From Bradyrhizobium sp. CCBAU 53340 (lineage in GTDB: Bacteria > Pseudomonadota > Alphaproteobacteria > Rhizobiales > Xanthobacteraceae), in assembly GCF_015291645.1 (NCBI RefSeq), contig NZ_CP030055.1, positions 992,001 through 1,056,000 on the forward strand: a stretch of 64,000 nucleotides of DNA, written 5' to 3'. The first letter of the stretch is position 1. Each line of letters starts with the position of its first letter. Of this stretch, positions 1,305 to 17,391 are shown piece by piece. A program made the position numbers and the translations under genes. The notes under the pieces were generated by a model. The model did no database searches and was not told where the DNA came from. It saw nothing but the letters and a program-made list of their open reading frames with translations.

Positions 1305-1513
1305 AGCGAAAACCTATCAATCGTGTCGTTCTATATATTGGACTTGATGTCGCGCCTGGTCAACGAATGACCGATCGAGCCTCCGTCCGCCCTGCAAAGC
1401 GTCGGCCAGCTCTGCACGCAGCGGCCTCATGCCGCTGCCAACGACAACAACGGCGAAAGGCTCAAGCCGCCGATCAAGCTAGACAGATACAAGCCCAGCG
1501 AGCGAGGAAAGCC
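1305..1513. promoter_or_regulatory. Divergent control region between the lysR gene and the symporter operon
   Basis: This 209-bp region should contain both divergent promoters. An AT-rich patch at 1310-1350 stands out from the GC-rich surroundings. It holds inverted halves ATCAA (1316-1320) and TTGAT (1344-1348) around TATATATTG, a plausible LysR operator, though such short halves could occur by chance. A frame open upstream of the symporter start, from 1367, encodes Arg/Ala/Gln-rich sequence unlike any transporter N-terminus and is treated as non-coding. Confidence 0.35.
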
Positions 1514-2848: not shown

Positions 2849-2873
2849 GCGCGGACGCCTTTGAGGTTGGTGA

Positions 2874-3380: not shown

Positions 3381-3382
3381 CG

Positions 3383-4222
3383 ATGTCATCGCGCACCTAT
3401 CACGTCCCGCAGGGCGGCCTGCCGCCGCAGACGGATCTCCTTAGCGGCCGCGCGGTCTTTACGACCGCGTACGCCGTTATTCCGAGCAGCGTGCAACGCG
3501 ATATCGTCGTCAGTTATTTGCCGCACTGGGACAATACGCGCGTCTGGGTGCTGGCGCGGCCGCTCTCCGGCTTCGCCGAGACGTTCTCCCACTATCTGAT
3601 GGAGATCGCGCCGGCAGGAGGAAGCGACATCCCCGAGCCCGAAAAGGACGCGGAGGGAGCGCTGTTCGTCGTGGGCGGGCATGTCACTCTCAAGCTGGCG
3701 GGCAAGGAAGCCGAGCTGAGGAGCGGCGGCTTTGCCTATGTGCCGCCGGGTTGCGCGTGGAGCCTTCGCAATCGCGGCCCGGGCCCGGCCCAGCTTCACT
3801 GGATCCGCAAGCTGTACCAGCGCGTGCCGGGTTTGGCCGACCCCGAACCGATCGTGGCCAACGAAGACTCGATTGCGCCGGTGCCGATGCCTGATACGGA
3901 CGGGCGGTGGGCCACCACGCGCTTCGTCGATCCCGCCGACCTCAGGCACGACATGCACGTTACCATCGTGACGTTCGAGCCGGGGGGAACGATCCCCTTC
4001 ATGGAGACGCACGTCATGGAGCACGGGCTGTACGTGCTCGAAGGCAAGGCGGTCTACCGCCTCAATCGCGATTGGGTGGAGGTCGAGGCCGGCGACTATA
4101 TGTGGCTGCGCGCGTTCTGCCCGCAGGCCTGCTACGCGGGAGGTCCCGGCCGATTTCGCTATCTGCTCTACAAGGACGTCAACAGGCACATGAATCTGCG
4201 GCAAGGGGCGCCGCTGATCTAG
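3383..4222 (+). CDS. allE: (S)-ureidoglycine aminohydrolase, bicupin
   Basis: The product is 279 residues with two cupin domains. The N-terminal one runs to about residue 140 with the GG-x-YVPPG cupin turn. The C-terminal one has EPGGTIPFMETHVMEHGLYVL, the metal-binding cupin motif with E and H ligands, and then WVEVEAGDYMWL. AllE/YlbA removes ammonia from ureidoglycine to give ureidoglycolate, the substrate of AllA encoded just upstream. The two genes are separated by 2 bp and are surely co-transcribed. The TAG stop (4220-4222) overlaps that of the convergent mdcH gene, leaving no room for a terminator between the two operons. Confidence 0.88.
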   Translation: MSSRTYHVPQGGLPPQTDLLSGRAVFTTAYAVIPSSVQRDIVVSYLPHWDNTRVWVLARPLSGFAETFSHYLMEIAPAGGSDIPEPEKDAEGALFVVGGHVTLKLAGKEAELRSGGFAYVPPGCAWSLRNRGPGPAQLHWIRKLYQRVPGLADPEPIVANEDSIAPVPMPDTDGRWATTRFVDPADLRHDMHVTIVTFEPGGTIPFMETHVMEHGLYVLEGKAVYRLNRDWVEVEAGDYMWLRAFCPQACYAGGPGRFRYLLYKDVNRHMNLRQGAPLI

Positions 4223-5142
4223 TCTTGCCGCGCGATCCAACTGCGCAGGCCGCCGATGGTGCGGAATCCGTCGGCGGCATAGCAGCGGATCGACGGAAAG
4301 GCGCCTTGCATCATCTCGGCCAGCGCATGTCCCGGGCCGAGGTCCAGCACGCGATCGACGCCTTGCTCTGCAAGAGCCTCCAGCGTCGCAGCCCAGTCGA
4401 TCGGGCGTGCGACCTGGCCGGCGAGCGTCGCCGTCGCATCGGATGCACAGAAGATGCGCTCGCCGCCATCTCCGGCGAGGAGGATCCGCTGAGCTGCAAT
4501 GGGCGCGTGCGTGCTCGCCGCGAACGCCTGTTGCAGGGGCTTGCAGGCCGCTTCGAGCCGTGACGTGTGCGAGGCGATCCTGACGGCGAGAAGTCCGGCC
4601 CGCGCGGCGCCCTGCGTTGTCGCCTCATGGCAGAGACCGATGACATCCCGTTCCGTGCCGCCGACCACATAGAGAAGATCGGGATTCCTGATCGCGATCT
4701 CGCAGCGATGCTTCGCAAGCAGCTGGCCGAGCGTGGTCCGATCGAGCCCGCGGACATAGCCGAGCCGGCTGTCCGGACCGGCCGCGCGGTCCATCAACCG
4801 GGCGCGGACATCGGTCAGTCGCAGGGCTTCGTCGGCGGTCCATAGTCCCGCGATGCTCCAGGCCGCCATCTCGCCAACGCTATAACCCGTGACCACGGTC
4901 TCCTTAGTCAGCAGATCGGCAATGCAGGCGTGGATCGCGAGGGCCGATGTGACGGTCAAGATCTGGCTGACGCGGTTGGCGGACAGCACGTCCGCGTTCC
5001 GCGTCCTCACGAACTCTCGCGGGTCTTCCCCGAGACGGGCCGTTGTGGCAGCGAAAACCGGCTCGGCAGCCGGCTGGCCGGCGACAAGATCAAAAATCTG
5101 GTCCGAGAGCGTGCCTTGTCCGCCGCAGAGCAGTGCCAGCAT
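4219..5142 (-). CDS. mdcH: Malonate decarboxylase subunit epsilon (malonyl-CoA:ACP transacylase)
   Basis: This 307-residue acyltransferase (FabD-like fold) has the nucleophile elbow G-Y-S-V-G-E at residues 86-91 (Ser88) and the N-terminal GGQG motif. MdcH loads the malonate decarboxylase acyl carrier subunit with malonyl from malonyl-CoA to prime the enzyme. The start at 5142 is chosen over longer frames because the protein then begins MLALLCGGQG and its ATG overlaps the mdcB TGA by one base (TGATG). It is the last gene of the mdcACDEGBH operon and converges on allE with overlapping stops. Confidence 0.88.
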   Translation of the reverse strand: MLALLCGGQGTLSDQIFDLVAGQPAAEPVFAATTARLGEDPREFVRTRNADVLSANRVSQILTVTSALAIHACIADLLTKETVVTGYSVGEMAAWSIAGLWTADEALRLTDVRARLMDRAAGPDSRLGYVRGLDRTTLGQLLAKHRCEIAIRNPDLLYVVGGTERDVIGLCHEATTQGAARAGLLAVRIASHTSRLEAACKPLQQAFAASTHAPIAAQRILLAGDGGERIFCASDATATLAGQVARPIDWAATLEALAEQGVDRVLDLGPGHALAEMMQGAFPSIRCYAADGFRTIGGLRSWIARQD

Positions 5143-5990
5143 CAGGGCCCCATCCGATCGACGAACAGGGTCATGGCGAGCAGATCTGCCGAGCCGCCCG
5201 GGCTGAGGTTGCGGGCGACGAATGCCTGGTGAATATCGGCGGCGCGCTTGCGCCATCCCGAAGAGCCGACGCCTCCGGCGGCAAGGAATGCAGACGCGCT
5301 ATCTTGCGCGAACCGCAATCCCTCGGCTCCGCCCCGGTGCAGCAGATTGGTGTCGGCGACTTCGGCCATCAACGCCATGCAGGTTTGAACGCGGACCGCT
5401 TCGTCATCGTCGGGCACGAGCGTCCGTGCCGCATGCAGCGCGGGAAGGGCGATGTCATAGACGGAGGGGAAACCGCAAGCGGCTTCCGCCCTGGCGCCGC
5501 CGGCGCCATAGCGGCGCGCAGCCACCGCGCCATGGCTGCGCAGCGAGATCGGGCCGTCGAGGATGGCCTCGCCCCATCGTTGCGACACCAATTCGCCGAG
5601 CGGCTTGCGGATGCCGAGCGCGCTGCGATAGCCGGCCGCGGCGCAGAGCAGGCCCAGCCCGAAGATCGCGCCGCGATGCGTGTTTACGCCCGAGGTCGCC
5701 GCCAGCATCGCGCGCTCGGCCGAAACCCCGATCGCGCGTAACCGGTCCATGCCGGCGCCCACGGCGCCTGCGGCGGCGAGCTCGTGGAAGAACGGTGCCA
5801 GCGTGTCGGCGCTTCGGCACAGCAGTTTGGCATCCATATCGCGATGTGCGCCGTTGTCGACATGGCTCACGAGCCCGGGCTTCGGATAGGTCTCGACTTC
5901 GCGCTTCAGGCAGAGCGAAGCGAGATGACCGAGCTGCTCCGCACGCAGCGCTCGTTGCGGCAGCGCTTGCCATCTCAGCGCAAGGTTCAT
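5142..5990 (-). CDS. mdcB: Triphosphoribosyl-dephospho-CoA synthase
   Basis: The product is 282 residues of the CitG/MdcB family. Visible family landmarks are EVETYPKPGLVSHVDNGAH near residue 30 (conserved K-P-G-L-V and D-x-G-x-H) and GVNTHRGAIFGLGLLCAAAG near residue 100. The enzyme condenses ATP with dephospho-CoA to form the prosthetic-group precursor that MdcG transfers to the acyl carrier subunit MdcC. It lies between mdcG (4-base overlap) and mdcH (1-base overlap) in one tightly coupled operon. Confidence 0.9.
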   Translation of the reverse strand: MNLALRWQALPQRALRAEQLGHLASLCLKREVETYPKPGLVSHVDNGAHRDMDAKLLCRSADTLAPFFHELAAAGAVGAGMDRLRAIGVSAERAMLAATSGVNTHRGAIFGLGLLCAAAGYRSALGIRKPLGELVSQRWGEAILDGPISLRSHGAVAARRYGAGGARAEAACGFPSVYDIALPALHAARTLVPDDDEAVRVQTCMALMAEVADTNLLHRGGAEGLRFAQDSASAFLAAGGVGSSGWRKRAADIHQAFVARNLSPGGSADLLAMTLFVDRMGP

Positions 5991-6634
5991 GACACCGCAC
6001 CCGACAGAAAAGCGGCGCGCGTCGTGCTCGCGACACCGGCCGGACCTTTCACAAGCACTTCGTCCTCGTCATGGCCGGTCAGCTCGCGCCATTGCACGCC
6101 CCCGGCGGGACCCATGATCTCGCCGTCCAGCCGCATCGGTGCCTGCTTGGCAATCGCGGCAATGTCGGACGGCAGGCTCTTTGCTTGCGTCACTGATGAC
6201 AGCGGCCAGAGCAGATCGAGATCCGAGCTCTCGGAAAGATAGGGAAGGCCGGTGAGATGCTGCCAGGCCAGACTGCCGAAGGTGCGCGTCTCCGGCAGAA
6301 GCGCAAGCAAGAGGTCGATGGTCGCGCGCCAGTGCGCAGGCGCCGCGGCGGCGGCATCGGCCAGCAGGGGCGGCGGAGCGGATGCGACGATATCAGCGGC
6401 GGCGAGCGAGATGGCGATGCGCCGTTTGCCATGGCTTGGAGGAAGCGGCAGACCGAGCGGAACGCGGCCGGCGGTATCGCTGCAGGCCGGCCGGCGGACG
6501 ATGAGGGGACGTCCCGCATGTACCCAGCCCGCGACGATCGGCTCGCTGGCAAGCTCGGGATAGCGATCCATCACCGCGGCCCATCCGGCCGTCGAGGCCT
6601 TTACCATGCTGTGGCGTGCGAGAGCTTCAGCCAT
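5987..6634 (-). CDS. mdcG: Phosphoribosyl-dephospho-CoA transferase (holo-ACP synthase of malonate decarboxylase)
   Basis: This is a 215-residue protein if it starts at the ATG at 6634. That choice overlaps mdcE by 8 bp and gives the ARHSMV segment that resembles the RPHDLL N-terminus of MdcG. The nucleotidyltransferase signature is visible as FGSLAWQ followed by SESSDLDLLWPL (G-S and D-x-D-L-L-W). MdcG attaches the triphosphoribosyl-dephospho-CoA made by MdcB to the serine of MdcC. A longer in-frame extension reaches 6805 but overlaps mdcE deeply and is Arg-rich, so it is rejected. Confidence 0.88.
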   Translation of the reverse strand: MAEALARHSMVKASTAGWAAVMDRYPELASEPIVAGWVHAGRPLIVRRPACSDTAGRVPLGLPLPPSHGKRRIAISLAAADIVASAPPPLLADAAAAAPAHWRATIDLLLALLPETRTFGSLAWQHLTGLPYLSESSDLDLLWPLSSVTQAKSLPSDIAAIAKQAPMRLDGEIMGPAGGVQWRELTGHDEDEVLVKGPAGVASTTRAAFLSGAVS

Positions 6635-7361
6635 GTTGCGATCCCCGATGCGCCGCGAGCGCAGCAACGCGATCGGCGATCTCGGCAGCTTTGCGCCTGC
6701 CGCCGCGTTCGGCGCCGAGCCGGCTGCGATCATCCCGTCCGTGCGACCGTTGCAGGACGGCCGCAAGCTGCGGCGCCAGCGGTGCGCTGTCGTCCCAGAC
6801 GGCATGAACGCCGCCCGTCAGCACCATGTTGTCGAGCCCGGGCGCGAACACGGGCGTCGCTTCGGCCTTGGCCTCCAGCACATCGATCGGCAGCTTGGTG
6901 ACCCGTGCCATCGACGGCAGGTCCATCACCGCGGGATGGGCGCCGGGCAGCGCCACCAGCGTGCCGGTGGCGAGCGCGGTGGCGATGAACGCGCCGGCGG
7001 CGCTACCGCCATAGAGCAGGCCGACGGTGCGATGGCCCTCGGCCTCCGCCAGCAGCAGCGCCTTGGCGAGATGCGACAGATATTCGCTGAGGCCGAGCAG
7101 CTCGTCGCGCTTGCTCATGCGCTGGCTGGCGGAATCCACCAGGAACAGAATCGGCGCCCGATCCTCGGACTTGACGATGTTGATCACGCGTCTCGCGAGC
7201 ACGATCGCCTCGTCGGCGCCAAGCGGCTGTCCCCCGATGATGCCGAGCACGTGGATAGGTCCGCCGTCGGGCAGCATCGCCCGTCCCGCGATCATCGCGC
7301 CTGATGTGTCGATCTTGCGCCCGTTCGGAAACAGGCTGGCCAGGATGTCATCGCGCGTCAT
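6627..7361 (-). CDS. mdcE: Malonate decarboxylase subunit gamma
   Basis: The product is 244 residues with the crotonase/carboxyltransferase-like fold of MdcE. It contains LVDSASQRMSKRDELLGLSEYLSHLAKAL and LLYGGSAAGAFIATALA (oxyanion-type glycine run), with a highly charged C-terminus. Together with MdcD it decarboxylates malonyl-S-ACP to acetyl-S-ACP and CO2 in the cytoplasm. The start at 7361 (MTRDDILASLFP) overlaps the mdcD end by 14 bp, consistent with translational coupling. A longer frame reaching 7556 reads through mdcD antiframe-type sequence and is not used. Confidence 0.9.
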   Translation of the reverse strand: MTRDDILASLFPNGRKIDTSGAMIAGRAMLPDGGPIHVLGIIGGQPLGADEAIVLARRVINIVKSEDRAPILFLVDSASQRMSKRDELLGLSEYLSHLAKALLLAEAEGHRTVGLLYGGSAAGAFIATALATGTLVALPGAHPAVMDLPSMARVTKLPIDVLEAKAEATPVFAPGLDNMVLTGGVHAVWDDSAPLAPQLAAVLQRSHGRDDRSRLGAERGGRRKAAEIADRVAALAAHRGSQHG

Positions 7362-8262
7362 CGGCGTTCTCCCTGTCGTTGGCGGCGCGGAGGAACGCGG
7401 CGGTCGGAAGTGCGGGAATCTCGGTCGGATCGCCGATGCCGAGCGCCTGCCAGATCTCGACCGCATCTTCGGCCTCGCCAAAGCGCTGCAATCGCCGCTC
7501 CAGCCGCGCCTGCTCGGCTTCGAGCACCGCCACATCAAATCGCCTGGTGGTCCCAAGTGCCTCGATCGCAGCTTGCCGAAACGCCAGCGCCTCGTCGTCG
7601 ACGAACATGTCGGCGCCGCCGATCAAATAGCGGTGCTTGCCGCCCATGGTGCGCCAGACCAGGGCGCGATCGCGCGAGTCGAATTCCTCGATGCCCTTGT
7701 TGGTCTCGATCACTTCGGGGCCGCTGACGCTGAGCCGGCCCTGTTCGGAGACAACAAGGCGCGAGCAGGTGCCAGCGATCAGGCTGCCCCCGCCATAGCA
7801 GCCGGCACGCCCGCCGATCAGGCCGACGACGTTGACGCCGGCGCAGCGCGCCTCGATCACGGCGCGCATGATTTCCGCGATCGCGAGCTCGCCGGCATTG
7901 GCTTCCTGCAGCCGCACGCCGCCGGTATCGAACAGGATCACCACGTCTTGCTTGAGCGCGCGGGCGGCGCGCAACAGGCCGGTGAGCTTGGCGCCGTGGA
8001 CTTCGCCGAAAGCGCCGCCCATGAAGCGTCCTTCCTGCGCAGCGACGAGCAGCGGCGCGCCGTCCAGGCGGCCACGTCCGACCACGATGCCGTCGTCGAA
8101 CTGCTCGGGCAGATCGAAGATCGACAGATGCGGGCTGATCTCGCGCAGCTCGGGGCCGATGAATTCAGAGAAGCTGCCGGCATCGAGCAGCGCGTCGATG
8201 CGCTGCCGGGCGCTCGCCTCGTACCAGCTCAGCGAGACGGCATTGGCTGTGACGGCTGTCAT
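7348..8262 (-). CDS. mdcD: Malonate decarboxylase subunit beta
   Basis: The product is 304 residues of the MdcD family with a carboxyltransferase-like fold. Visible features are SWYEASARQRIDALLD at the N-terminus, GRFMGGAFGEVHGAKLTGLL near residue 80, FDTGGVRLQEANAGE near residue 115, and RAGCYGGGSLIAG near residue 155, all glycine-rich active-site segments. With MdcE it forms the decarboxylase proper. Its ATG overlaps the mdcC stop by 4 bp. I see no frame interruption or missing segment. Confidence 0.92.
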   Translation of the reverse strand: MTAVTANAVSLSWYEASARQRIDALLDAGSFSEFIGPELREISPHLSIFDLPEQFDDGIVVGRGRLDGAPLLVAAQEGRFMGGAFGEVHGAKLTGLLRAARALKQDVVILFDTGGVRLQEANAGELAIAEIMRAVIEARCAGVNVVGLIGGRAGCYGGGSLIAGTCSRLVVSEQGRLSVSGPEVIETNKGIEEFDSRDRALVWRTMGGKHRYLIGGADMFVDDEALAFRQAAIEALGTTRRFDVAVLEAEQARLERRLQRFGEAEDAVEIWQALGIGDPTEIPALPTAAFLRAANDRENADDAR

Positions 8263-8576
8263 TGCTCCGGCTCCTCGATCTTGCGGACGCCCTGGGCAAG
8301 CCGCAGCGCCACCGTGTCGGGCCGGGCGCCACCGTCATTGACGGAGATGCGCAAGCCCCCGGCAGAGCGGCGGGCGACGAAGTCGCGGACCACGGCGTCC
8401 CACACCGTACCGAAGCCATGGGCCGCCGTTGCGATGTCGATGGTGCAGATGTCAGGCGGAAGGCCGCGTTCCAGCAGCACTTCGAGATTGCCGGAGGCGA
8501 CCACGCCGACGATGGCCTGCGCGCGGGTGCCGCCGGCGGATCTGGTTGCAGTCAGTCTGAAGCTGAGCTTTTCCAT
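8259..8576 (-). CDS. mdcC: Malonate decarboxylase subunit delta (acyl carrier protein)
   Basis: This 105-residue protein has the normal MdcC length. The prosthetic-group attachment region V-A-S-G-N-L-E-V-L-L places the modified serine at residue 28, equivalent to the S-G-D/N-L-E motif of known MdcC and CitD proteins. It carries the acetyl/malonyl thioester on 2'-(5''-phosphoribosyl)-3'-dephospho-CoA between MdcA and MdcDE. The conserved C-terminal N-D-x-G-A-R-P-D is also present at about residues 80-87. It sits 10 bp after mdcA and overlaps mdcD. Confidence 0.92.
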   Translation of the reverse strand: MEKLSFRLTATRSAGGTRAQAIVGVVASGNLEVLLERGLPPDICTIDIATAAHGFGTVWDAVVRDFVARRSAGGLRISVNDGGARPDTVALRLAQGVRKIEEPEQ

Positions 8577-8586
8577 GCAAAACGCC

Positions 8587-10233
8587 TCACCAGTTGCGGA
8601 AACGGCTCGGCGGGCGGTAGAGGCCGCCGGAGGCCAGCATGAGGTCCTTGATCGAGCGGGCCGCCAGCAGATTGCGGTCGGCGTCGAGCGGATCGATGCC
8701 GAGATCCTCGGGGCGCTGGATCACGCCGCGTTGCCGGAGCTGCTCGACCAGTTTCGTATCGCGGGCACGACCGATGTCGGTGTAGCCGGCCACGCCGCGG
8801 ATGGCCTGCTCGCGCTCGTCCTTGCTGCGGCACATCAGGAGGTTGGCGATGCCTTCCTCGGTGACGATGTGGGTGACGTCGTCGGAGTAGACCATCACCG
8901 GCGCCAGATCGAGGTCGAGCTTGTGCGCCAGATCGAGCGCATCGAGCCGCTCGACGAACAAAGGCGTGTTGCGCTCGCCGAAGGTCTCGCCGATCTGCAC
9001 CACCAGCTTGCGGCCGCGGCGCAGTGCCGCCTTGGAGTCGGGATCGGCTTCGGCGCCGGCCTTGAGCCAGGGTTCGCTCGGGTGACGGCGGCCGCGCGGA
9101 TCGGAGCCCATGTTGGGCGCGCCGCCGAATCCGGCGATCCTGCTGGTCGTCACCGTCGAGCTGTGGCCTTCGAGATCGATCTGCAGCGTCGATCCGATGA
9201 ACATGTCGCAGGCATAGAGCCCCGCGGTCTGGCAGAAGGCGCGGTTGGAGCGCAGCGAGCCGTCGGGCCCGGTGAAGAAGATGTCGGAGCGCGCCGCGAC
9301 GTAATCCTCCATGCCGACTTCTGAGCCGAAGCAATGGATCTGCTCGACCCAGCCGGATTCGATTGCCGGAATCATCGTCGGATGCGGGTTGAGCGCAAAG
9401 TGCGTGCAGACCTTGCCCTTGAGCCCGAGCTTCTCGCCATAGGTCGGCAACAACAGCTCGATCGCGGCGGTGTTGAAGCCGATGCCGTGGTTGAGCCGGC
9501 GCACGCCATAGGGCGCGTAGATGCCCTTGATGGCCAGCATCGCCGTCAGGATCTGGGTCTCGGTGATGGCGGCGGGATCGCGGGTGAAGAGCGGCTCGAC
9601 ATAAAAGGGCCGGCCGGCCTCGACCACGAAATGCACGAGGTCGCCGGGAATGTCGACGCGCGGCACCCTGTCGACGATCTCGGTGACCTGCGCCACGACG
9701 AGACCGTTCTTGTAGCTGGTCGCCTCGACGACGGTCGGCGTGTCCTCGGTGTTCGGTCCCGTATAGAGATTGCCGTCCCTGTCGGCGCTGACCGCCGCGA
9801 TCAGCGCGACGTTCGGCGTGAGATCGATGAAGTAGCGCGCGAACAGCTCGAGATAGGTATGGACGGCCCCGAGCTCGATCTTGCCGCCGAACAGCATGCG
9901 CGCGATGCGCGCCGATTGCGGGCCCGAATAGGAGAAGTCGAGCCGCCGCGCGATGCCCTTCTCGAAGATGTCGAGATGCGCGGGCAGCACCACGCCTGAT
10001 TGCACCATGTGCAGGTCATGGGCATCCCGGGGGTCGAGGCTGGCGAGCGCCGAGGCGAGGATATCGGCCTGCTTCTGATTGTCGCCTTCGAGGCACACCC
10101 GCTCGCCTGACCGGATCACCGCCTTCAGAAACGGGCCGAGGTTCGGGATCGGGACGACCTTTCCCTTGGCGTGCTGTCGGCCGGCCGCCAGGCGCTCACC
10201 GAGGGCGGCCTTTTGCATACCCCAACCGCTCAT
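8587..10233 (-). CDS. mdcA: Malonate decarboxylase subunit alpha (acetyl-S-ACP:malonate ACP transferase)
   Basis: The product is 548 residues, the full MdcA length, beginning MSGWGMQKAALG after an AAGGAG ribosome site. The protein reads colinearly with the MdcA family: GDNQKQADILASAL, NTEDTPTVVEATSYKNG, and a C-terminal segment ending RPPSRFRNW. MdcA swaps the acetyl group on the carrier protein for malonyl, starting each catalytic turn. It is the first gene of the minus-strand operon mdcA-C-D-E-G-B-H. That order matches the Acinetobacter-type malonate cluster. The divergent madLM transporter genes lie across 194 bp. Confidence 0.93.
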   Translation of the reverse strand: MSGWGMQKAALGERLAAGRQHAKGKVVPIPNLGPFLKAVIRSGERVCLEGDNQKQADILASALASLDPRDAHDLHMVQSGVVLPAHLDIFEKGIARRLDFSYSGPQSARIARMLFGGKIELGAVHTYLELFARYFIDLTPNVALIAAVSADRDGNLYTGPNTEDTPTVVEATSYKNGLVVAQVTEIVDRVPRVDIPGDLVHFVVEAGRPFYVEPLFTRDPAAITETQILTAMLAIKGIYAPYGVRRLNHGIGFNTAAIELLLPTYGEKLGLKGKVCTHFALNPHPTMIPAIESGWVEQIHCFGSEVGMEDYVAARSDIFFTGPDGSLRSNRAFCQTAGLYACDMFIGSTLQIDLEGHSSTVTTSRIAGFGGAPNMGSDPRGRRHPSEPWLKAGAEADPDSKAALRRGRKLVVQIGETFGERNTPLFVERLDALDLAHKLDLDLAPVMVYSDDVTHIVTEEGIANLLMCRSKDEREQAIRGVAGYTDIGRARDTKLVEQLRQRGVIQRPEDLGIDPLDADRNLLAARSIKDLMLASGGLYRPPSRFRNW

Positions 10234-10272
10234 TTTGGCTCCTTGGCATGCGGGAACTGGCTTTGATGGCGT

Positions 10273-10377
10273 TTAATGTATGCGTATTGCCTCGTTATGT
10301 CAATTAGTGTATACGTAACGCCATAAGCGATGGATATTCGCATACACAGGAGGGAATTTATGATGCGAATGCATACA
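10273..10377. promoter_or_regulatory. Probable MdcY/GntR operator cluster in the mdcA-madL divergent region
   Basis: Four related sites stand out in this AT-richer stretch: TAATGTATGCGTATT (about 10274-10288), TTAGTGTATACGTAA (10304-10318), ATATTCGCATACAC (10334-10347) and GCGAATGCATACAG (10364-10377). The second is a near-palindrome around GTATAC and resembles the ATTGTATACAAT operator described for Acinetobacter MdcY. An mdcY-like gene lies just downstream, and both divergent transcripts start here. The inference is that the GntR regulator binds these sites to control decarboxylase and transporter together. Confidence 0.6.
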
Positions 10378-10431
10378 GAGCGCCCACATCCGGGGGATCG
10401 CGCCCCGCTCGCGCAGGGGAGGCGCCTGTGA
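10360..10431 (+). CDS. Candidate 23-codon leader ORF coupled to madL
   Basis: An excellent ribosome site (AGGAGG at 10348-10353) precedes ATGATG at 10360. The frame runs 23 codons, rich in Arg, His and Pro, and stops at TGA 10429-10431. This stop overlaps the GTG start of madL (10428) as GTGA, the typical translational-coupling arrangement. No protein family is recognisable. It may be a leader peptide or a device that brings ribosomes to the madL GTG. Chance occurrence is possible for so short a frame. Confidence 0.4.
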   Translation: MMRMHTERPHPGDRAPLAQGRRL

Positions 10432-10862
10432 CCATTTCCGGCGTCGCGCTGCTTGCGATCTGCACGCTGCTTGGAGGTCTGCTTGGAGACCTGCTCGGCG
10501 TCATCCTCGGTGTGAAGGCCAATGTCGGCGGGGTCGGCATTGCCATGATTTTTCTGATCGCGGCCCGGCTGTGGCTGGTGCGGCACGGCCTGCTCAGCCA
10601 CGGGCTCAAGACCGGCGTCGAGTTCTGGGGCAGCTTCTACATTCCCATCGTGGTCGCGATGGCCGCGCAGCAGAACGTCGTCGCCGCGGCAAAGGGCGGC
10701 CCGATCGTCGTCATTGCCGGTGCTGGTGCGGTCGCGGTGTGTTTCGCGATGGTGGCCCTGATCGGCCGGCTCAGTGGCCGCGTCGAGACGATGGACGAGA
10801 TCGAGGCCCGAGAGGCGATCGAGGCGAGCGTGCCGCACTTCAAGTCCGGGAGGATCGGATGA
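10428..10862 (+). CDS. madL: Malonate transporter subunit MadL
   Basis: This is a 144-residue hydrophobic protein with about four membrane segments (residues 5-25, 33-50, 64-85, 90-115) and the MadL-type N-terminus ISGVALLAICTLLGG-LLGDLLG. The start is GTG at 10428, preceded by AGGGGAGG. MadL and MadM together form a small two-subunit sodium-linked malonate importer first described in Malonomonas. Its TGA overlaps the madM ATG (ATGA). Location opposite the malonate decarboxylase operon confirms the substrate. Confidence 0.9.
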   Translation: MTISGVALLAICTLLGGLLGDLLGVILGVKANVGGVGIAMIFLIAARLWLVRHGLLSHGLKTGVEFWGSFYIPIVVAMAAQQNVVAAAKGGPIVVIAGAGAVAVCFAMVALIGRLSGRVETMDEIEAREAIEASVPHFKSGRIG

Positions 10863-11623
10863 CCATGATATCCCACGTTCTCGCAGCAAATGCGCTGATC
10901 ACCGCGTTCGCCGCCGTCGGCATCCTGATGTGGATCTCCGGCGCGATCTCGAAATATCTCACCTTTGGACGCATCCACGGCTCGGCGATCGCGATCATGC
11001 TGGGTCTCGTGCTGGCCTTTTTCGGCGGCATCGCCACCGGTGGCGAGAAGGGCGTGGCCGACCTTCCGGCGCTGACCGGGATCGCCCTGATGGGCGGCGC
11101 GATGCTGCGGGACTTCGCCATCGTCGCCACCGCCTTCGAGGTCGATGTCGTCCATGCGCGCAAAGCCGGATTGATCGGTGCGGTCGCGCTCGGACTGGGA
11201 ACGGTCGTCCCGTTCATCCTCGGCGTGTTTGTCGCCGCGGCGTTTGGCTACACCGATGCGATCTCGCTGACCACGATCGGTGCCGGCGCGGTCACCTATA
11301 TCGTCGGACCGGTGACGGGGGCTGCGATCGGGGCATCCTCACCGGTTATTGCGCTCTCGATCGCGACCGGTGTATTCAAGGCGGTGATCGTGATGATCGG
11401 CACGCCTTTTGTGGCCAACATGATCGGCCTCAACAATCCGCGCAGCGCGATGGTGTTTGGCGGCTTGATGGGAACGGTCAGCGGCGTGTCCGGAGGGCTG
11501 GCGGCGACCGATCGGCGCCTGGTGCCTTACGGCGCATTGACCGCGACGTTTCACACGGGCCTCGGATGCCTGGTCGCACCGTCCATCCTCTACTTCACGG
11601 TGCGCGCAATCATAGGAAGCTGA
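10859..11623 (+). CDS. madM: Malonate transporter subunit MadM
   Basis: The product is 254 residues, strongly hydrophobic with about seven predicted helices, starting MTMISHVLAANALITAF at the ATG that overlaps the madL stop. Glycine-rich segments GLVLAFFGGIATGGEKGVADL and TIGAGAVTYIVGPVTGAAIGA are typical of MadM. It partners MadL in malonate uptake across the cytoplasmic membrane. A longer frame starting at 10571 lies inside madL and has an Arg-rich shadow sequence, so it is not used. The stop is directly followed by the regulator ATG at 11624. Confidence 0.9.
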   Translation: MTMISHVLAANALITAFAAVGILMWISGAISKYLTFGRIHGSAIAIMLGLVLAFFGGIATGGEKGVADLPALTGIALMGGAMLRDFAIVATAFEVDVVHARKAGLIGAVALGLGTVVPFILGVFVAAAFGYTDAISLTTIGAGAVTYIVGPVTGAAIGASSPVIALSIATGVFKAVIVMIGTPFVANMIGLNNPRSAMVFGGLMGTVSGVSGGLAATDRRLVPYGALTATFHTGLGCLVAPSILYFTVRAIIGS

Positions 11624-12331
11624 ATGGCGGGTCTGTTCAAAGTCGCAACCGAAGCCGAAGAAGATGGCGGGCTTCTCTCCGATCGCATCCGCAATGCGCT
11701 CACGGACGAGATTGCCTCCGGCGCGCTCGTCGCCGGTTCGGCTCTGGAAGAGCAGCAGCTTGCCGATCGCTTCGGCGCGTCCCGCACGCCGGTGCGGGAG
11801 GCGCTGCGGCAGCTCGTGGTCAGCGGGCTGGTCGAGGTCCGGGGCCGTCGTGGGGTCGTGGTGGCGCGGATGACGCCCGAGCGCATCATGGACATGTTCG
11901 AGACCAGCGCAGAGGTGGAGGCCATGTGCGTCCGCCTCGCGACCTTTCGCATGACGCCGCTTGAGCGCAGCCATCTGATCGAGCTTCACGAGAGCTCGCT
12001 GGCGATGGTCGAGGCCAACGACGTCGACGCCTATGATGCGTTCAACCGGACCTTCCACGAATGCATCTACAGCGCCACGCACAACTCGTTCATGGCCGAG
12101 CAGGCCCAGGACGTCCGTGCGCGGCTCAGCGCCTTTCGCCGCACCCAGTTGCGGCAGGGTGATCGTATCCGCAAGTCCCGCGACGAGCACGATGCCATCA
12201 TGCAGGCGATCGCCGAAGGCGACGGCGATACGGCCTCGCGCCGGATGCGCGCCCATATGCTGAACGCCGCCGCGGCGCTGCGGCGCTATATCGACGATCG
12301 CGTGCGCCCCGTCGAGCCCGACGACGTCTAG
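11624..12331 (+). CDS. mdcY: GntR-family (FadR/FCD subfamily) regulator, MdcY-like
   Basis: The product is 235 residues. A winged helix-turn-helix spans about residues 18-85 (LLSDRIRNALTDEIASGAL, EEQQLADRFGASRTPVREALRQL), then an all-helical FCD effector domain with MDMFETSAEVEAMCVRLA and the metal-ligand type histidines of RTFHECI and RMRAHML. It is co-transcribed with madLM, with no intergenic base after madM. By position and family it is the likely repressor of the malonate locus, responding to malonate, as MdcY does in Acinetobacter. The gene symbol rests on context and not on ortholog testing. Confidence 0.82.
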   Translation: MAGLFKVATEAEEDGGLLSDRIRNALTDEIASGALVAGSALEEQQLADRFGASRTPVREALRQLVVSGLVEVRGRRGVVVARMTPERIMDMFETSAEVEAMCVRLATFRMTPLERSHLIELHESSLAMVEANDVDAYDAFNRTFHECIYSATHNSFMAEQAQDVRARLSAFRRTQLRQGDRIRKSRDEHDAIMQAIAEGDGDTASRRMRAHMLNAAAALRRYIDDRVRPVEPDDV

Positions 12332-12354
12332 CGCCGGGCGACGACGGATGCGCG

Positions 12355-13497
12355 TCACACCGGGAACGTCAGTGACTTCGCGAGCCTGACCAGATCGACC
12401 TGACGGCGGCTCCCTGTCTTCTCGAACACATGAAGCAGATGGGTCTTCACTGTGGCGACGGACACGCCGAGCAGATCTGAGATGGCGTCGCGCGTGTGTC
12501 CCTCGCAGATGAGCTCGAAGATGCGGATCTCGGCCGGCGTCAAATCGTAGAGCTGGTTCAGGGCAATGTGGGACATCTGCGGCGGCCCGGACGCCGACGT
12601 TACGAACAGAGCCGCGGCGGCGCGCTGGATGAGGCCAGCGCGCATCCGGCCGCGCTGCAGCGGCAGGACGTGGATGACGAGCGGATCGCCGCTGGCGCGA
12701 AGGATCGGGATGCCGATGCCCTTCTGGCCCAGTGCGGCCTCGTCCTTTGCCGCCTGTGCGATCGCCGATTGCAACGAGTTGGTCGTCTTTACGGATTGGA
12801 CCGCAATTCGGCCCTGTCGGACCACGATCGGATCTTCGGCCGCAAGCATTGCCGTCGCAGCGGCGTTGCTATGGACAATCTTTGCATCCTCGTCAGCGAG
12901 CACGACGCCGACGGTCAGAGCCTCCACCGTCGCGGAGAATGTCGCGGCTTCCACCGCCTTCAAGTCGAACAGATTGCTGATGGTCACGGCGCGGCGGATG
13001 TGGGGCGTCAGCAGCCGTAATCCGCCGAGCTGAGCATCGTCGATGGGGCCGGCCGATTCATGCTGGCTGAAGATCGCGTTGCCGACCATCGCCCGGTCGC
13101 GAACGAGGCCGACGGCCACGGCGTCGAACAGGCCTTTGGGCAGAGCCCATTCGCGGTAATAGCGATTACCGGCGATGATGTCCTTCCGCACGGCCTGGGA
13201 TTGAACGATCGGCTCTCCGAGCGGGTATTGCTGGATGCGCGCGGCGCCGCCCCAGAGTTCGATGATATCAGGCCCATAGCCGATGGCGTTTTGGGCCATC
13301 TCGGCCAGGTTGGATCCGGAGACCGCATTGACGAGGGCCTTCCGATTCGTGAGGCTGGCGGCCGAGAGCGCGCCGGTGGCAAAGCCGAGCCGAGCGCAAA
13401 TTCCCTCCAGGACGTCGGTCCAGCGTTCGGGGGCGATGACACAATCGTAGATATCACCAATGAGATCAGAGAATTCTTCGATCGAAACCTGCTGCAT
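12355..13497 (-). CDS. LuxR-type helix-turn-helix transcriptional regulator
   Basis: The product is 380 residues. The C-terminal 65 residues form a LuxR/FixJ-type DNA-binding domain: LTPAEIRIFELICEGHTRDAI and VSVATVKTHLLHVFEKTGS. The N-terminal 300 residues look like a GAF-like segment followed by a PAS-like one (ALTVGVVLADEDAKIVHSN near residue 195). There is no receiver domain and no obvious autoinducer site, so the signal is unknown. The 290 bp upstream hold its promoter; I see no further gene there. It converges on mdcY (23 bp apart) and lies next to the aspartic protease gene, which might be its target; that link is only positional. Confidence 0.85.
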   Translation of the reverse strand: MQQVSIEEFSDLIGDIYDCVIAPERWTDVLEGICARLGFATGALSAASLTNRKALVNAVSGSNLAEMAQNAIGYGPDIIELWGGAARIQQYPLGEPIVQSQAVRKDIIAGNRYYREWALPKGLFDAVAVGLVRDRAMVGNAIFSQHESAGPIDDAQLGGLRLLTPHIRRAVTISNLFDLKAVEAATFSATVEALTVGVVLADEDAKIVHSNAAATAMLAAEDPIVVRQGRIAVQSVKTTNSLQSAIAQAAKDEAALGQKGIGIPILRASGDPLVIHVLPLQRGRMRAGLIQRAAAALFVTSASGPPQMSHIALNQLYDLTPAEIRIFELICEGHTRDAISDLLGVSVATVKTHLLHVFEKTGSRRQVDLVRLAKSLTFPV

Positions 13498-13787
13498 TCC
13501 AACCGCTCATTTGGACGCAATTCCGAACGAACTGCGTCACTTCAAAGTCATTCCGGGCCGACGATCATCCGTCCGATCGCGGATGTGACTGCCCGACAAA
13601 CAGGGCCTTAATGAGCCAAAGTCTTATCATCGTGACCCCGTGACACAATGAGCCACCGAGCGCAGGCGGTGGTCTGTGCCTGAGTAAAATGGTGGCAGAT
13701 GCAAAGCTGCGTATACAGATCGATTCGTATTGCAGGCTTTCGCGATACCCCTCGCACTCCTGTGCCGCCCAAGCGGCCGGCATCAGC

Positions 13788-15026
13788 TCATGGCTTGATC
13801 CTGGCAAAGCTGACGACGCCGAGCCCTTTGTCGACCGAGCGGTCGAATACGGTGAAGTAGTTGTTCATCAGCGGCAGCCCGAGAATCGACGGGCCCTTTT
13901 CGGGGCCGAGGGCCAGCGAGGCGTGGCCGGCTTTCGGCGCGTTGGTCTGCCAATAGGTTTGCGGCGTGACCTCCAGGATGACGTCGCTGCCGAGCGCGCC
14001 TTCCAGCACGAAGGTCAACACCGGCCAGTCTTTCAGCTTGAGCTTGCTCATCGGCAGGTAGCCTGCGTGAATCTCATCCTCGAAGCCGAGGGATTTGAAC
14101 CGGGCGAGGACCTCCTTGAACACCGGCCTGTCGAGATAGATTGCCGTGGTGCCGCTGTCGACGATGGCATTGGACGGATCGTGGCTGGCCTTGGTCGGCG
14201 GGAAGGCTTGGACAGGCGCGGTCTTTCCGACCCTGACCGACTTCAGATTGACATTGTAGTAGGTGTCGTGAACCACGCGCGCGACCTGGAAGGCGCCGTC
14301 GTAGAGATCCGTTTGCTCCTCGCCGCCGCCGAAGATGAGAAATCCATTGTTCAGCGAATCCGTCGCGGGCTTCACCGTCGCCTTGTTGACCGCGGATCGC
14401 AATGTGTAGAACGCGAACTTGTTGGCGACCAGGCCCGCGGCCTCCAGTTGCGAGAAATACGGCTCGATATAGGCGCGGTGGCCTTTCTGAATCTGGTTGT
14501 AGGTGTAGCGGGGTGGAATGGTCCGCCCCGGCATCGTGTAGGCGTCGTTGAGCCTGCTGTAGGCAAGACCGAGGATGCCGCCATGCGACTTCCCGAACAT
14601 CTCCTCGGTCGCGTGATACGCGACGGCCGTATGGACCTTGGACAGGACGAGGGGATGAGCGGAGTTGACGGTGATATCGGTCAGCACGATGCCGCCGACC
14701 CAGCGGCTGCGATCTTCGTAGGAAACCTCCTGGCCGATGTTGGTGAGCTTGGCTGCGCTGTCCTTGGTCGGGTCGTAGAAATGGCCATCCACCGCCAACG
14801 TGCTGCTGCCGGTATCGAGAAGCACGTCGATCTCGATCTTCTTGCTGCCGACATAGATCTTGCCGCTGTAGTCGCCGTCGTTGAGGACGTTGGTGATGGG
14901 CATCCGCACGGTGGTTGGAGAGATTCTTCCGCCGAGCGCAGCTGCAGCGCTGTGGATCGGGTGCGTCAATTGCGGAGCGATCAGCGCCTTTGGCAGGTTG
15001 GCTTTCCTCGTGGCTTTGGCCATCAC
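13788..15026 (-). CDS. Pepsin-like (family A1) aspartic protease
   Basis: This 412-residue protein shows both lobes of a eukaryote-type pepsin. The first catalytic motif is LLDTGSS (Asp71), and a flap-like SYEDRSRWVGGIV follows with Tyr103. GGILGLAYS at 149-157 matches pepsin's GILGLAY. The second catalytic motif is AIVDSGTT (Asp290). The C-terminus ILGLPLMNNYFTVFDR (381-396) matches the ILGD-x-FLR-x-YYTVFDR block. Retropepsin-like bacterial proteins have one motif, so this is a true two-domain enzyme. I see no clear signal peptide: the first 35 residues are Lys/Ala-rich without a hydrophobic core. Bacterial A1 proteases (such as Shewanella shewasins) are known but uncommon. The stop lies 290 bp from the LuxR start. 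Confidence 0.9.
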   Translation of the reverse strand: MMAKATRKANLPKALIAPQLTHPIHSAAAALGGRISPTTVRMPITNVLNDGDYSGKIYVGSKKIEIDVLLDTGSSTLAVDGHFYDPTKDSAAKLTNIGQEVSYEDRSRWVGGIVLTDITVNSAHPLVLSKVHTAVAYHATEEMFGKSHGGILGLAYSRLNDAYTMPGRTIPPRYTYNQIQKGHRAYIEPYFSQLEAAGLVANKFAFYTLRSAVNKATVKPATDSLNNGFLIFGGGEEQTDLYDGAFQVARVVHDTYYNVNLKSVRVGKTAPVQAFPPTKASHDPSNAIVDSGTTAIYLDRPVFKEVLARFKSLGFEDEIHAGYLPMSKLKLKDWPVLTFVLEGALGSDVILEVTPQTYWQTNAPKAGHASLALGPEKGPSILGLPLMNNYFTVFDRSVDKGLGVVSFARIKP

Positions 15027-15297
15027 GCACCTCTCTGATCAAATATTGCGGCGTTGCCGCGCGCTGTCGGGTTGAGGCGGAATTCTCAGGGGTTGCTGGC
15101 GGTCGCTCCACAGTCGGGCAGGAAGCTGCCGAGCGTCAGATGGTTCGTATGAATTGCGAGATCAAAATCGATAGTCCAAATGCCGTCGAGACAGGGATTG
15201 CGACCCGCCGGAAAGCGGGCTGCAACGTATGACCGGTCCCAAGGCAGGGTTCAGCATAAGGCGAGAATCTGCGCGACGCAACGTCAGCGCGATTACT

Positions 15298-17391
15298 CTA
15301 GCGCCCGGCCTTCGCGAGATTCGCCAGGCTCGCCGCCAGCTCGTCACTTCGGAACGGCTTTGTCAGCCGCGACAGCTCCGGCGAGATGCCTTCGTTGTTG
15401 GCGTAGCCTGATACGACGAGGATCTGGAGCTCGGGAATCTGGTCGCGCAGCGTCAGCCCAAGGTCCGTGCCGCTCATGCCGGGCATCAGATGGTCCGTGA
15501 CCAGCAGGTTCGGCCGCAGGCCATCCTTGACGCGCTGAAGCGCATCCTCCGCCGAACCTGTTTCGACGACCCTGTAGCCGAGCTCGCTCAGCATCTCGGC
15601 GGTGCTCATGCGCGCCAGCGGTTCGTCGTCCACCAGCAGTGCGGTGCCGGCGGGCAGCGGTCGCGGTTTTGCCTGCGAGGCGGTATCGATCGTGCCCGCG
15701 GCCGTGTGGCTGACCGGCAGCCACAATTCGACTGTGGTGCCTGCTCCCACCGTGCTCTTGATCGTCAGCGCCCCGCCGAGCTGTGACGCCAGGCCGTGGA
15801 CCATCGAAAGACCAAGTCCGGTGCCTTGTCCGATCCCCTTGGTCGAGAAGAATGGCTCGACGGCGTGAGCCAGCGTCTCTTCGTTCATGCCGATGCCGGT
15901 ATCCGCAACCGAGATACAGACATAGGTGCCCGGCGCCAAATCTGAGCCGTGGGCGTGCTCGATTGTCCTCGTCTTGGCCGAGATACGCAACTTGCCGCCG
16001 TCGGGCATCGCATCACGCGCGTTCACGCTGAGGTTCAGGATTGCCATCTCGATCTGGTTGGGATCGGCCATGGCCTCTGGCAGCCCTTCCGGTGTGTCCA
16101 CCGTCACCTGGATCTGCGGGCCGGTCGTGCTGGAGATCAGCTCGCCCATGTCGGTGACGAGCCGGCCGATATTGACGGGAACAGCCTGAAGCGGCTGCCT
16201 GCGCGCGAAAGCAAGCAGGCGCTGCACCAGCGTCTTGGCGCGTTCGGCCGCCTGCGCGGCGCCCGCGATCAGGCGGCGTTCGCGCTCGCCGCCGATGCCC
16301 CTGCGCTGGAACAGGTCGAGCAGGCCGACGATCGGCGTCAGCAGATTGTTGAAATCATGCGCGACGCCGCCGGTGAGCTGGCCCATTGCCTCCATCTTCT
16401 GTGCATGACGCAGCGCTTCCTCGGCCTGCGCCAATCGCGCCTGCTCCTCGAGGCGATCCGTCACGTCCGTCCCGGTCACGAATGCGCCGATCCTCGCACC
16501 GTCGGGAGTACGCAGCGCCTCGAACTTCATCTCGTGGACGCGGCGGTCGAACCTGATATCGCCGAATTGATCGATGCTGGTGAAAGCTTCGCCCGCAAGT
16601 GCGCGCCCCCAGATCGCCGTTGTAGCGAGATGCTCGGGCCGGTCTGCCAGGAATTCGTGCAGGGAATCGCCGACCTTCGGCCGCTTGCCGTAGATGCGCT
16701 GGTAGGCGTCGGCGCAGGAGGCGTTGATGGCAAGCCAGCGATAGTCGAGATCGAGCGCCTGGATCTGGCCGTCGGTGGTTTCCACGATGGTGGCGAGCAA
16801 ATGCCGCTCGGCGGTGCGTTCGGCGACACGCTGCTCGAGCGTGGCATTGAGCTCCCTGTAGCGCGCCTCGCTCGCCCGCAGCTGGGCCTCACCCAGCACG
16901 CGTTCACTGGTCTCGGAGACAATGCAGAGCACGCCACCGACAGAGCCGTCATCGTCAGCGATCGCCGAATAGGAGACGTCCCAGTAGCTCGTCTCGCCAT
17001 AGCCATGGCGCTCGACATAGAAGGGACGATCCTTTGCCGCGAAGGTCTTTCTCGTTTGGCGCACGCCCGACAGGAGCGGCTCGAGATCATCCCACAGCTC
17101 GCCCCAGTTCTCGATCGCGGGCCGGCCGAGGGCGCGGGGGTGATTGGCGCCGATACCGGGAGCGTAGGCATCGTTGTAGAGTGCGACGTATTCAGGGCCC
17201 CAGAACAGCACGATCTGGGCCTGTGCGGCCAGCAGCATGCTGACCGTCGTCTTGAGGGCCTGGGACCATTGGCGGGGAGGGCCGAGCGGCGAGGCTGACC
17301 AGTCGAGGGCACGCATCATCGTACCCAGCTCACCTCCCTCGGAGAGGAAGCCGACATCAGTTGACTGCCGAGCAGCTTTCTCCGACAGCAC
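15298..17391 (-). CDS. PAS-containing hybrid histidine kinase with C-terminal receiver
   Basis: The product is 697 residues with no membrane segment, so it is a cytoplasmic sensor. A PAS-like module covers about 45-165 (ILFWGPEYVALYNDAYAPG) and a second about 195-315. A HisKA dimerisation helix has the phospho-acceptor His345 (GGVAHDFNNLL). The ATPase domain has Asn457 (N-box), DTGIGM at 497 and GTGLGLSMVHGL at 523. The receiver domain (585-690) has the acidic pair in VDDE, phospho-acceptor Asp633 and Lys678. A consensus EcfG-type promoter lies 79 bp upstream, suggesting stress-controlled expression. No partner response regulator is adjacent. Confidence 0.92.
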   Translation of the reverse strand: MLSEKAARQSTDVGFLSEGGELGTMMRALDWSASPLGPPRQWSQALKTTVSMLLAAQAQIVLFWGPEYVALYNDAYAPGIGANHPRALGRPAIENWGELWDDLEPLLSGVRQTRKTFAAKDRPFYVERHGYGETSYWDVSYSAIADDDGSVGGVLCIVSETSERVLGEAQLRASEARYRELNATLEQRVAERTAERHLLATIVETTDGQIQALDLDYRWLAINASCADAYQRIYGKRPKVGDSLHEFLADRPEHLATTAIWGRALAGEAFTSIDQFGDIRFDRRVHEMKFEALRTPDGARIGAFVTGTDVTDRLEEQARLAQAEEALRHAQKMEAMGQLTGGVAHDFNNLLTPIVGLLDLFQRRGIGGERERRLIAGAAQAAERAKTLVQRLLAFARRQPLQAVPVNIGRLVTDMGELISSTTGPQIQVTVDTPEGLPEAMADPNQIEMAILNLSVNARDAMPDGGKLRISAKTRTIEHAHGSDLAPGTYVCISVADTGIGMNEETLAHAVEPFFSTKGIGQGTGLGLSMVHGLASQLGGALTIKSTVGAGTTVELWLPVSHTAAGTIDTASQAKPRPLPAGTALLVDDEPLARMSTAEMLSELGYRVVETGSAEDALQRVKDGLRPNLLVTDHLMPGMSGTDLGLTLRDQIPELQILVVSGYANNEGISPELSRLTKPFRSDELAASLANLAKAGR

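What the first reader, a model, noticed from the sequence alone, without database searches (positions are those of the whole stretch)
13788..15026. Full two-domain pepsin-type aspartic protease in a rhizobial-type genome
Both catalytic motifs (DTGSS at 71-75, DSGTT at 290-294), a flap Tyr, GILGLAYS and the ILG...FTVFDR C-terminal block are all present in one 412-residue protein. This is the eukaryote-style A1 architecture. Bacterial A1 proteases are known only from scattered lineages. There is no obvious signal peptide or propeptide, so it may work inside the cell, where a pepsin-like enzyme would be surprising. It lies beside a LuxR regulator and a hybrid kinase of unknown targets.
Basis: partly seen in the sequence, partly recalled or inferred. 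Interest (0 to 1): 0.78.

Follow-up and report, generated by a model that had tools for sequence, protein, structure and literature searches.

The report
Bradyrhizobium pepsin-like aspartic protease
A root-nodule-type bacterium carries an intact relative of the stomach enzyme pepsin with no visible export signal; it belongs to a family already known from a few bacteria but found here in several more kinds, so it is a real and useful but not unprecedented find.

Summary

Bacterial A1 peptidases without signal peptides were described in 2009 (PMC2761423), and shewasin D was shown to be mainly cytoplasmic in 2016 (PMC4814920). The protein falls in one of three linked bacterial groups (A, B and the shewasin type S). 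By flap residue and spacing it is not of the published Sinorhizobium/Marinomonas type. Group A differs from S by Thr, not Ala, after the second D[ST]G and by a basic N-terminal tail. Six paper searches showed no description of it. In Bradyrhizobium it is rare (3 of 265 genomes, its own included) and absent from a matching site in a relative. The LuxR and kinase neighbours are probably incidental.

Most likely function: a cytosolic, acid-favouring endopeptidase. Activity was not tested.

The parts
13788..15023 (-). A1 (pepsin-type) aspartic peptidase gene, 411 aa, ATG start (alternative GTG at 15026)
   Evidence: PF00026 E 7.5e-22; start context; the ATG and RBS are kept in all 4 aligned orthologues
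14802..14816 (-). first catalytic motif D70-T-G-S-S
   Evidence: translation; D70, T71, G72, S73 invariant in 114 aligned proteins, S74 in 113
14718..14720 (-). flap tyrosine Y102, 32 residues after D70
   Evidence: invariant in 114 aligned proteins; spacing 32 in 232 and 33 in 3 of the 235 proteins with the motif pattern, of 240 looked at
14556..14579 (-). GILGLAYS, first psi-loop hydrophobic-hydrophobic-Gly motif (residues 149-156)
14145..14159 (-). second catalytic motif D289-S-G-T-T; Thr292 is the pepsin Thr218 equivalent
   Evidence: D289, G291, T292 invariant in 114 aligned proteins; Thr in 118 of 118 first-search rows scored, 2 of 120 not scored
13878..13886 (-). I380-L-G, second psi-loop motif, followed by Leu (pepsin Asp303 equivalent position)
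   Evidence: Leu in 115 of 118 first-search rows, pattern not found in 3
14916..15023 (-). basic N-terminal extension (residues 1-36); residues 1-15 below pLDDT 50, blocks 21-30 and 31-40 at 84 and 88
15253..15281 (-). promoter-like TTGCGT-N17-TATGCT upstream of the gene; TTGCG and TATGCT identical in 4 of 4 orthologues (inference; the consensus scan reported no promoter)
15048..15060 (-). possible hairpin GCGGC-AAC-GCCGC upstream of the ribosome-binding site, identical in 4 of 4 orthologues
   Evidence: in the scan it is the one terminator-like hit, no more than shuffles give (mean 1.9)
13730..15304 (.). segment missing from the matching site of Bradyrhizobium genome G014 (empty site)
   Evidence: flank matches end at 13729 and resume at 15305, 22 bases apart in G014; G014 has no match to the protein anywhere
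15298..17391 (-). neighbour: PAS/HisKA/HATPase/receiver hybrid histidine kinase; judged incidental
   Evidence: present beside the empty site
12355..13497 (-). neighbour: LuxR-type (GerE) regulator; judged incidental
   Evidence: no match in the loci L002 and L003

Best explanation
The gene encodes an active-site-intact, single-chain, two-lobed aspartic endopeptidase of family A1 that most likely stays in the cytosol. D70 and D289 are taken to face each other across the cleft and activate a water molecule, with the Y102 flap closing over the peptide (residues and predicted fold shown here; the chemistry follows from family A1; the Asp-Asp distance was not measured). It has no visible signal peptide, no cysteines and no recognised eukaryotic propeptide, so it is probably made as a ready enzyme. 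Thr at the 218 position argues for an acid optimum, and shewasin A and D, the closest bacterial A1 peptidases with published activity that I found, work best near pH 3.5-4. I therefore infer that near-neutral cytoplasmic pH keeps it quiet and that acidification (acid soil, acid stress, cell damage) turns it on for general or selected protein breakdown. It is a single accessory gene, probably with its own promoter, probably acquired by a Bradyrhizobium lineage from other bacteria and kept under selection. My confidence by step: A1 peptidase with intact active site 0.95; catalytically active 0.85; cytosolic 0.75; acid-switched 0.45; horizontal origin from other bacteria 0.75.
For: Pfam match; catalytic, flap and psi-loop residues invariant or nearly so in 114 aligned proteins; AF2 model and BACE1 match; no Cys and low N-terminal hydrophobicity; dN/dS 0.136-0.268 in six pairs of four orthologues; trees in which group A, group B and the shewasin-type group S are separate, linked bacterial groups; Thr at the 218 position in 118 of 118 first-search rows scored; shewasin D active at pH 3.5-4, pepstatin-inhibited and mainly cytoplasmic, shewasin A most active at pH 4 (PMC4814920, part 1 of 7 and passages); patchy occurrence and empty site; promoter-like element and RBS identical in 4 orthologues.
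Against: No activity, pH or localisation data for this protein. Shewasins mostly have Ala at the 218 position yet are acid-active, so this residue predicts pH optimum poorly. An enzyme with a pH 4 optimum has no obvious work in a healthy cytoplasm. Shewasin-type proteins are only 29-39% identical to this one (16 rows), so properties may not carry over. The basic tail could carry a localisation or secretion signal that I cannot read. The promoter reading rests on conservation among four copies that are 87-91% identical; the consensus scan found none.
Confidence: 0.6

Rival explanations
1. A cytosolic processing protease that works at near-neutral pH on a few specific substrates.
For: The 303-equivalent position is Leu, not Asp, removing the partner of Thr218 that in pepsin is tied to a low optimum (PMC2761423, part 2). 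Strong conservation outside the catalytic motifs (mean column identity 63% over 72 sequences) fits a specific substrate.
Against: Shewanella homologues in print also have Leu at 303, and shewasin A has no activity at pH 6 while shewasin D loses 70% at pH 5 (PMC4814920). No gene partner shared by the four lineages looked at.
Confidence: 0.22
2. A protease that leaves the cell without a classical signal peptide and digests protein outside, in acid soil.
For: Named relatives include Acidobacteria, a phylum common in acid soil (recalled); the shewasin D authors kept a signal-independent export route open (PMC4814920 passages). Basic N-terminal tail in most first-search rows.
Against: Shewasin D label was only rarely extracellular. 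No hydrophobic stretch in the N-terminus: 1 of the 136 proteins (of 240) with at least 40 residues before the Asp exceeded a mean of 1.6. None of six neighbouring genes scanned is a secretion gene.
Confidence: 0.13
3. An A1-fold protein that no longer cleaves peptides, as in plant xylanase inhibitors.
For: Weaker matches to TAXi_C (25.3 bits, just over its cut-off of 23.9) and TAXi_N (18.9, below its cut-off) in Pfam.
Against: PF00026 scores far better (78.6 bits); both Asp and the flap Tyr are invariant.
Confidence: 0.05

Closest known systems
Shewasin-type bacterial A1 peptidases (shewasin A and D in print; Shewanella sediminis protein fetched here as P0263)
   Same: Two-lobed A1, no signal peptide in print, Asp-to-flap-Tyr spacing of 32 in shewasin A and D by the published residue numbers, Leu after the second psi-loop Gly in 98 of 119 third-search rows (pattern not found in 21). 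29-39% identical to the window protein (16 rows). P0263 matches the published entry in length and Asp positions (514 aa, D41, D364). Shewasin A and D themselves were not fetched.
   Different: Third-search rows mostly have Ala at the 218 position (96 of 119), first-search rows Thr (118 of 118); the first-search rows have a basic N-terminal tail (88 of 96 with an extension of 12 or more residues reach charge +4, against 6 of 66).
Sinorhizobium medicae / Marinomonas A1-like proteins (PMC2761423)
   Same: A1-like, bacterial, one host is also a rhizobium.
   Different: Those have Phe instead of the flap Tyr, wider spacing (44 and 46) and no conserved psi-loop motifs in print. They were not fetched; three proteins that I assign to this type by Phe and +46 spacing fall on a separate, very long branch.
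Beta-secretases BACE1/BACE2
   Different: BACE are secretory, membrane-anchored, disulphide-bonded proteins (recalled); this one has no Cys and no visible signal peptide.
Source-named 'pepsin-like aspartic protease' / 'A1 family peptidase' of Bradyrhizobium manausense, Terracidiphilus, Acidobacteriaceae (first search) and Isosphaeraceae, Methylomirabilota, Bryobacteraceae (second search)
   Same: Same family; 86% (B. manausense), 62% (Terracidiphilus) and 59% (Acidobacteriaceae) identical.
   Different: My paper searches showed no functional description of any of them.

Membership tests
Peptidase family A1 (PF00026) | Pfam PF00026 above its curated cut-off over the full domain | tested here: met
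   78.6 bits against 19.9, profile 2-308 of 315
Peptidase family A1 (PF00026) | Two D[ST]G motifs in one chain, each after hydrophobic residues | tested here: met
   VLLDTGSS and AIVDSGTT; D70 and D289 invariant in 114 aligned proteins
Peptidase family A1 (PF00026) | Flap tyrosine (pepsin Tyr75) | tested here: met
   Y102 invariant in 114 aligned proteins
Peptidase family A1 (PF00026) | Two hydrophobic-hydrophobic-Gly psi-loop motifs | tested here: met
   ILG at 150-152 and 380-382
Peptidase family A1 (PF00026) | Two-lobed pepsin fold | tested here: met
Peptidase family A1 (PF00026) | Pepstatin-sensitive endopeptidase activity | not testable with these tools
   needs purified protein
Typical eukaryotic A1 zymogen | Disulphide bonds | tested here: not met
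   no Cys in the protein
Typical eukaryotic A1 zymogen | Signal peptide | tested here: not met
   by a hydrophobicity measure only (maximum mean 0.65); no dedicated program was run
Typical eukaryotic A1 zymogen | Inhibitory propeptide | tested here: inconclusive
   a basic tail precedes the domain and residues 21-40 are modelled at 84-88 pLDDT; their path relative to the cleft was not seen
Shewasin-type bacterial A1 | Lies inside the group of Shewanella/Colwellia-type proteins | tested here: not met
   without the M-type rows, A (20 rows), B (14) and S (16) are three separate groups at 100/100, 94/86 and 100/100; which two are sisters depends on the root and is not settled
Shewasin-type bacterial A1 | Ala at the Thr218 position (all marine homologues in print) | tested here: not met
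   Thr292 here; Thr in 118 of 118 first-search rows scored. So it is filed as a related group, not as a shewasin
Sinorhizobium/Marinomonas type | Phe in place of the flap Tyr, spacing 44-46 | tested here: not met
   Y102, spacing 32
Plant xylanase inhibitor (TAXi) | Loss of the catalytic Asp residues | tested here: not met
   both Asp present and invariant

The most novel reading that the evidence does not exclude
Group A is an undescribed set of cytosolic bacterial pepsins in which near-neutral cell pH replaces the propeptide as the safety catch: the enzyme is stored ready-made and fires when the cell acidifies or breaks. The basic tail would tether it to an anionic partner (nucleic acid, ribosome or membrane). 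Together with group B and the marine shewasins it would be a bacterial A1 lineage older than, and independent of, gene capture from eukaryotic hosts.
Probability: 0.25. Interest if true: 0.7.

Novelty: new member of a known kind. Interest (0 to 1): 0.42.

Why it matters
[quoted passage not shown] The 2016 shewasin D paper says that no detailed functional studies of bacterial pepsin-like proteases were available (passages), and my searches showed none since. An intact, selected copy in a Bradyrhizobium gives a genetic system in which one deletion can test what a bacterial pepsin does. The Thr218 rows of groups A and B also give a comparison with the Ala218 shewasins for what sets the pH optimum, and sequences for testing whether two-lobed pepsins arose in bacteria or were captured from eukaryotes.

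Tried and rejected
Plant or eukaryote gene capture by this rhizobium: not favoured. The Bradyrhizobium copies lie at a tip inside group A, next to unnamed and bacterial-named proteins. I put no eukaryotic sequences in the trees, so the deeper origin of the whole family stays open.

Mobile element: not shown. No match in 72,556 plasmid or 50,697 phage records by tblastn; 40 viral-contig stretches matched a peptide pattern but none encoded a relative. I recognised no element in 13730-15304. GC 61.1%, GC2 43% and GC3 83% are within the range of the eight other window genes that I compared, but GC1 (57.3%) is below all eight (64.3-71.9%), which could be a trace of foreign origin or just protein make-up.

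Operon with the kinase or LuxR gene: judged unlikely. There are gaps of 274 and 290 bases (coordinates), a conserved promoter-like element, and an empty site in G014.

Conserved partner gene: none seen. Neighbours were helicase-like and phosphoesterase-like frames in the planctomycete by eye, not searched, GNAT, methylase and GGDEF proteins in G501, and a glycosyltransferase in G297.

Whether G014 lost the gene or never had it: unresolved. The flank tree has bootstraps 62 and 71 at the relevant forks.

Sister group of the window's clade: unsettled. One search joined A with S (98/93), but one search put two shewasin-like rows with B and the M-type rows inside A, with a long-branch warning. Without M-type rows, A, B and S are separate and the root decides. 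I first wrote 'sister of the shewasins' and withdrew it.

RNA family upstream: none at gathering threshold. The one terminator-like hit is the 5' hairpin, and shuffles give as many.

'Group A', 'B' and 'S' mean the rows listed by the first, second and third protein search (120 each), not tree clades; the tree held 20, 14 and 16 rows of them or their loci. Sampling: 93 rows, 54, 50; 72 rows in the structure alignment. Marinomonas, S. medicae and shewasin A and D sequences were not fetched; 'M-type' is my assignment by published residue spacing.

The looser flap pattern gave spacing 26 in 45 of 118 group B rows and 28 of group S, where by eye it caught an earlier Tyr; I rely for A and B. The searches listed nothing by title or abstract on A1 peptidases of Bradyrhizobium, Acidobacteria or soil bacteria; one search showed 20 of 141 papers, and the library lacks most subscription papers.

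Full report
What is there. The minus strand of 13788-15023 encodes a 411-residue protein; the ATG at 15023 has GAGAGG 6 bases upstream, and the listed GTG adds one residue. PF00026 matches residues 53-399 of the 412-aa form at E 7.5e-22, well over its cut-off, while the plus strand gives nothing. The genome is taken to be Bradyrhizobium: three of the four loci that the protein found in named genomes are Bradyrhizobium records at 86-88% identity in colinear surroundings; the fourth is a Planctomycetales MAG at 43%. The genome has one A1 gene.

Location in the cell. There is no cysteine, and the most hydrophobic 15-residue stretch starting in the first 45 residues averages 0.65; among the 136 of 240 proteins with at least 40 residues before the Asp, 1 exceeds 1.6. 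This fits the 2009 prediction that bacterial homologues lack signal peptides (PMC2761423, parts 1 and 2 of 5 read) and the finding that shewasin D is mainly cytoplasmic, pepstatin-inhibited and most active at pH 3.5-4 (PMC4814920, part 1 of 7 and passages).

Place in the family. Three protein searches gave 1238, 1302 and 280 matching clusters, the best 120 listed each time; only about 8000 candidates were scored in each, so these are lower bounds and may overlap. The names given include, in the first search, Bradyrhizobium, Terracidiphilus and Acidobacteriaceae; in the second, Isosphaeraceae, Methylomirabilota, Bryobacteraceae and a Thermoplasmata MAG; in the third, Shewanella, Colwellia, Aliikangiella, Thalassotalea and others. 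That the first two sets are largely soil bacteria is my inference from these names; no call showed habitats. P0263 (Shewanella sediminis HAW-EB3, 514 aa, D41 and D364) agrees with the published Ssed_3567 entry.

Trees. In a 50-row tree of sampled rows, A (20 rows, with the window protein), B (14) and S (16, shewasin type) are separate at 100/100, 94/86 and 100/100. The window protein is 58-100% identical to A rows (itself included), 39-45% to B rows and 29-39% to S rows. With three very divergent rows that I call M-type (Phe flap, +46 spacing, as printed for Marinomonas) added, A and S joined at 98/93 and B was split; in an earlier 93-row tree two shewasin-like rows joined B and the M-type rows fell inside A, with a long-branch warning. 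The root, and so the sister of A, is not settled. Bradyrhizobium rows lie at one tip of A in each tree.

Group differences (rows of the first, second and third search, 120 each). Residue at the 218 position: Thr in 118 of 118 and 118 of 118 rows scored, against Ala in 96 of 119. N-terminal extension of 12 or more residues with charge +4 or more: 88 of 96, 6 of 42 and 6 of 66.

Distribution. PF00026 occurs in 8 of 398 genomes of the phylum (7 over the cut-off) and 1 of 385 of the class (the window's own); this protein in 3 of 265 of the genus, its own included (an earlier sample gave 2 of 146). In the phylum of the planctomycete it occurs in 1 of 246, the genome used as centre. Such patchiness speaks for horizontal spread or many losses.

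Site. In all four carriers the protease follows the same hybrid-kinase gene. L004 keeps the LuxR gene on the other side; L002 and L003 continue there with sequence that in the window lies at 409-4220. Genome G014 has the kinase and LuxR regions 22 bases apart with nothing of the 13730-15304 segment and no match to the protein. G014 is as close to the window in the flank (89.2%) as the carriers are (86.8-88.4%), so a loss in G014 is plausible, but the tree is unresolved. G913 is identical to L002 in this flank, and G063 has the contig length and overlapping coordinates of L003, so the carriers that I saw amount to four genomes. dN/dS between the four copies is 0.136-0.268: the gene is kept.

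Expression. Between the kinase stop (15298) and the ATG, TTGCG, TATGCT 17 bases after TTGCGT, and GCGGC-AAC-GCCGC before the RBS are identical in 4 of 4 orthologues. The consensus scan found no sigma-70 site, and its one terminator-like hit (this hairpin) is no more than shuffles give, so promoter and hairpin are inferences. No Rfam family reaches its threshold.

Mechanism and limits. Shown: sequence, fold prediction, conservation, selection, site. Inferred: catalysis, cytosolic location, acid control, donor group. The pH inference is the weakest step: Thr218 argues for acid, Leu at 303 removes its partner, and shewasins with Ala218 and Leu303 are acid enzymes anyway.

Literature. The searches listed the 2009 and 2016 papers and papers on retropepsin-like enzymes, but by title and abstract nothing on A1 peptidases of Bradyrhizobium, Acidobacteria or soil bacteria. 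A 2025 paper still calls bacterial aspartic peptidases mostly highly restricted (PMC11957791 passages). The PMC6411800 passages seen concern secreted aspartic peptidases.

Verdict. A real, intact bacterial pepsin homologue of a known kind, in a group that seems undescribed in the papers I could search. Interest is moderate.

Noticed in passing
P0159 (source name: MAG TPA Thermoplasmata archaeon): An A1 peptidase assigned to an archaeal MAG, whereas the 2009 survey found none in archaea; could be mis-binning.
   Followed up: no
window 15048-15060, minus strand: Possible hairpin GCGGC-AAC-GCCGC in the presumed 5' leader, identical in four orthologues, though not more than chance in the scan.
   Followed up: partly
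window 4220-13775 compared with L002 and L003: The malonate decarboxylase / MadL / GntR / LuxR block between window 4220 and 13775 gave no match in the 17-kb loci of two carriers, where the protease lies next to sequence matching 409-4220.
   Followed up: partly
G008:C1:6810209-6812548: Two adjacent matches to the LuxR region, suggesting a tandem LuxR duplication.
   Followed up: no
L010 and L011 (G377, G483): M-type A1-like proteins sit in longer open frames (723 and 659 aa) with a C-terminal region that by eye holds similar blocks.
   Followed up: no
P0280 and P0311; P0312 and P0316: Shewanella waksmanii and S. atlantica each appear to carry two different A1 peptidases (names).
   Followed up: no
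window protein residues 24-36: A SAAAALGGKxS segment between the basic tail and the domain is kept in 60-90% of 114 aligned proteins per column at most of its positions; not seen in the planctomycete protein L005.
   Followed up: partly
window protein residue 293: The second motif reads DSGTN in 217 of 240 motif matches in the relatives, but DSGTT in the window protein.
   Followed up: no
window 13788-15023: First-codon-position GC (57.3%) is below that of the eight other window genes compared (64.3-71.9%).
   Followed up: no
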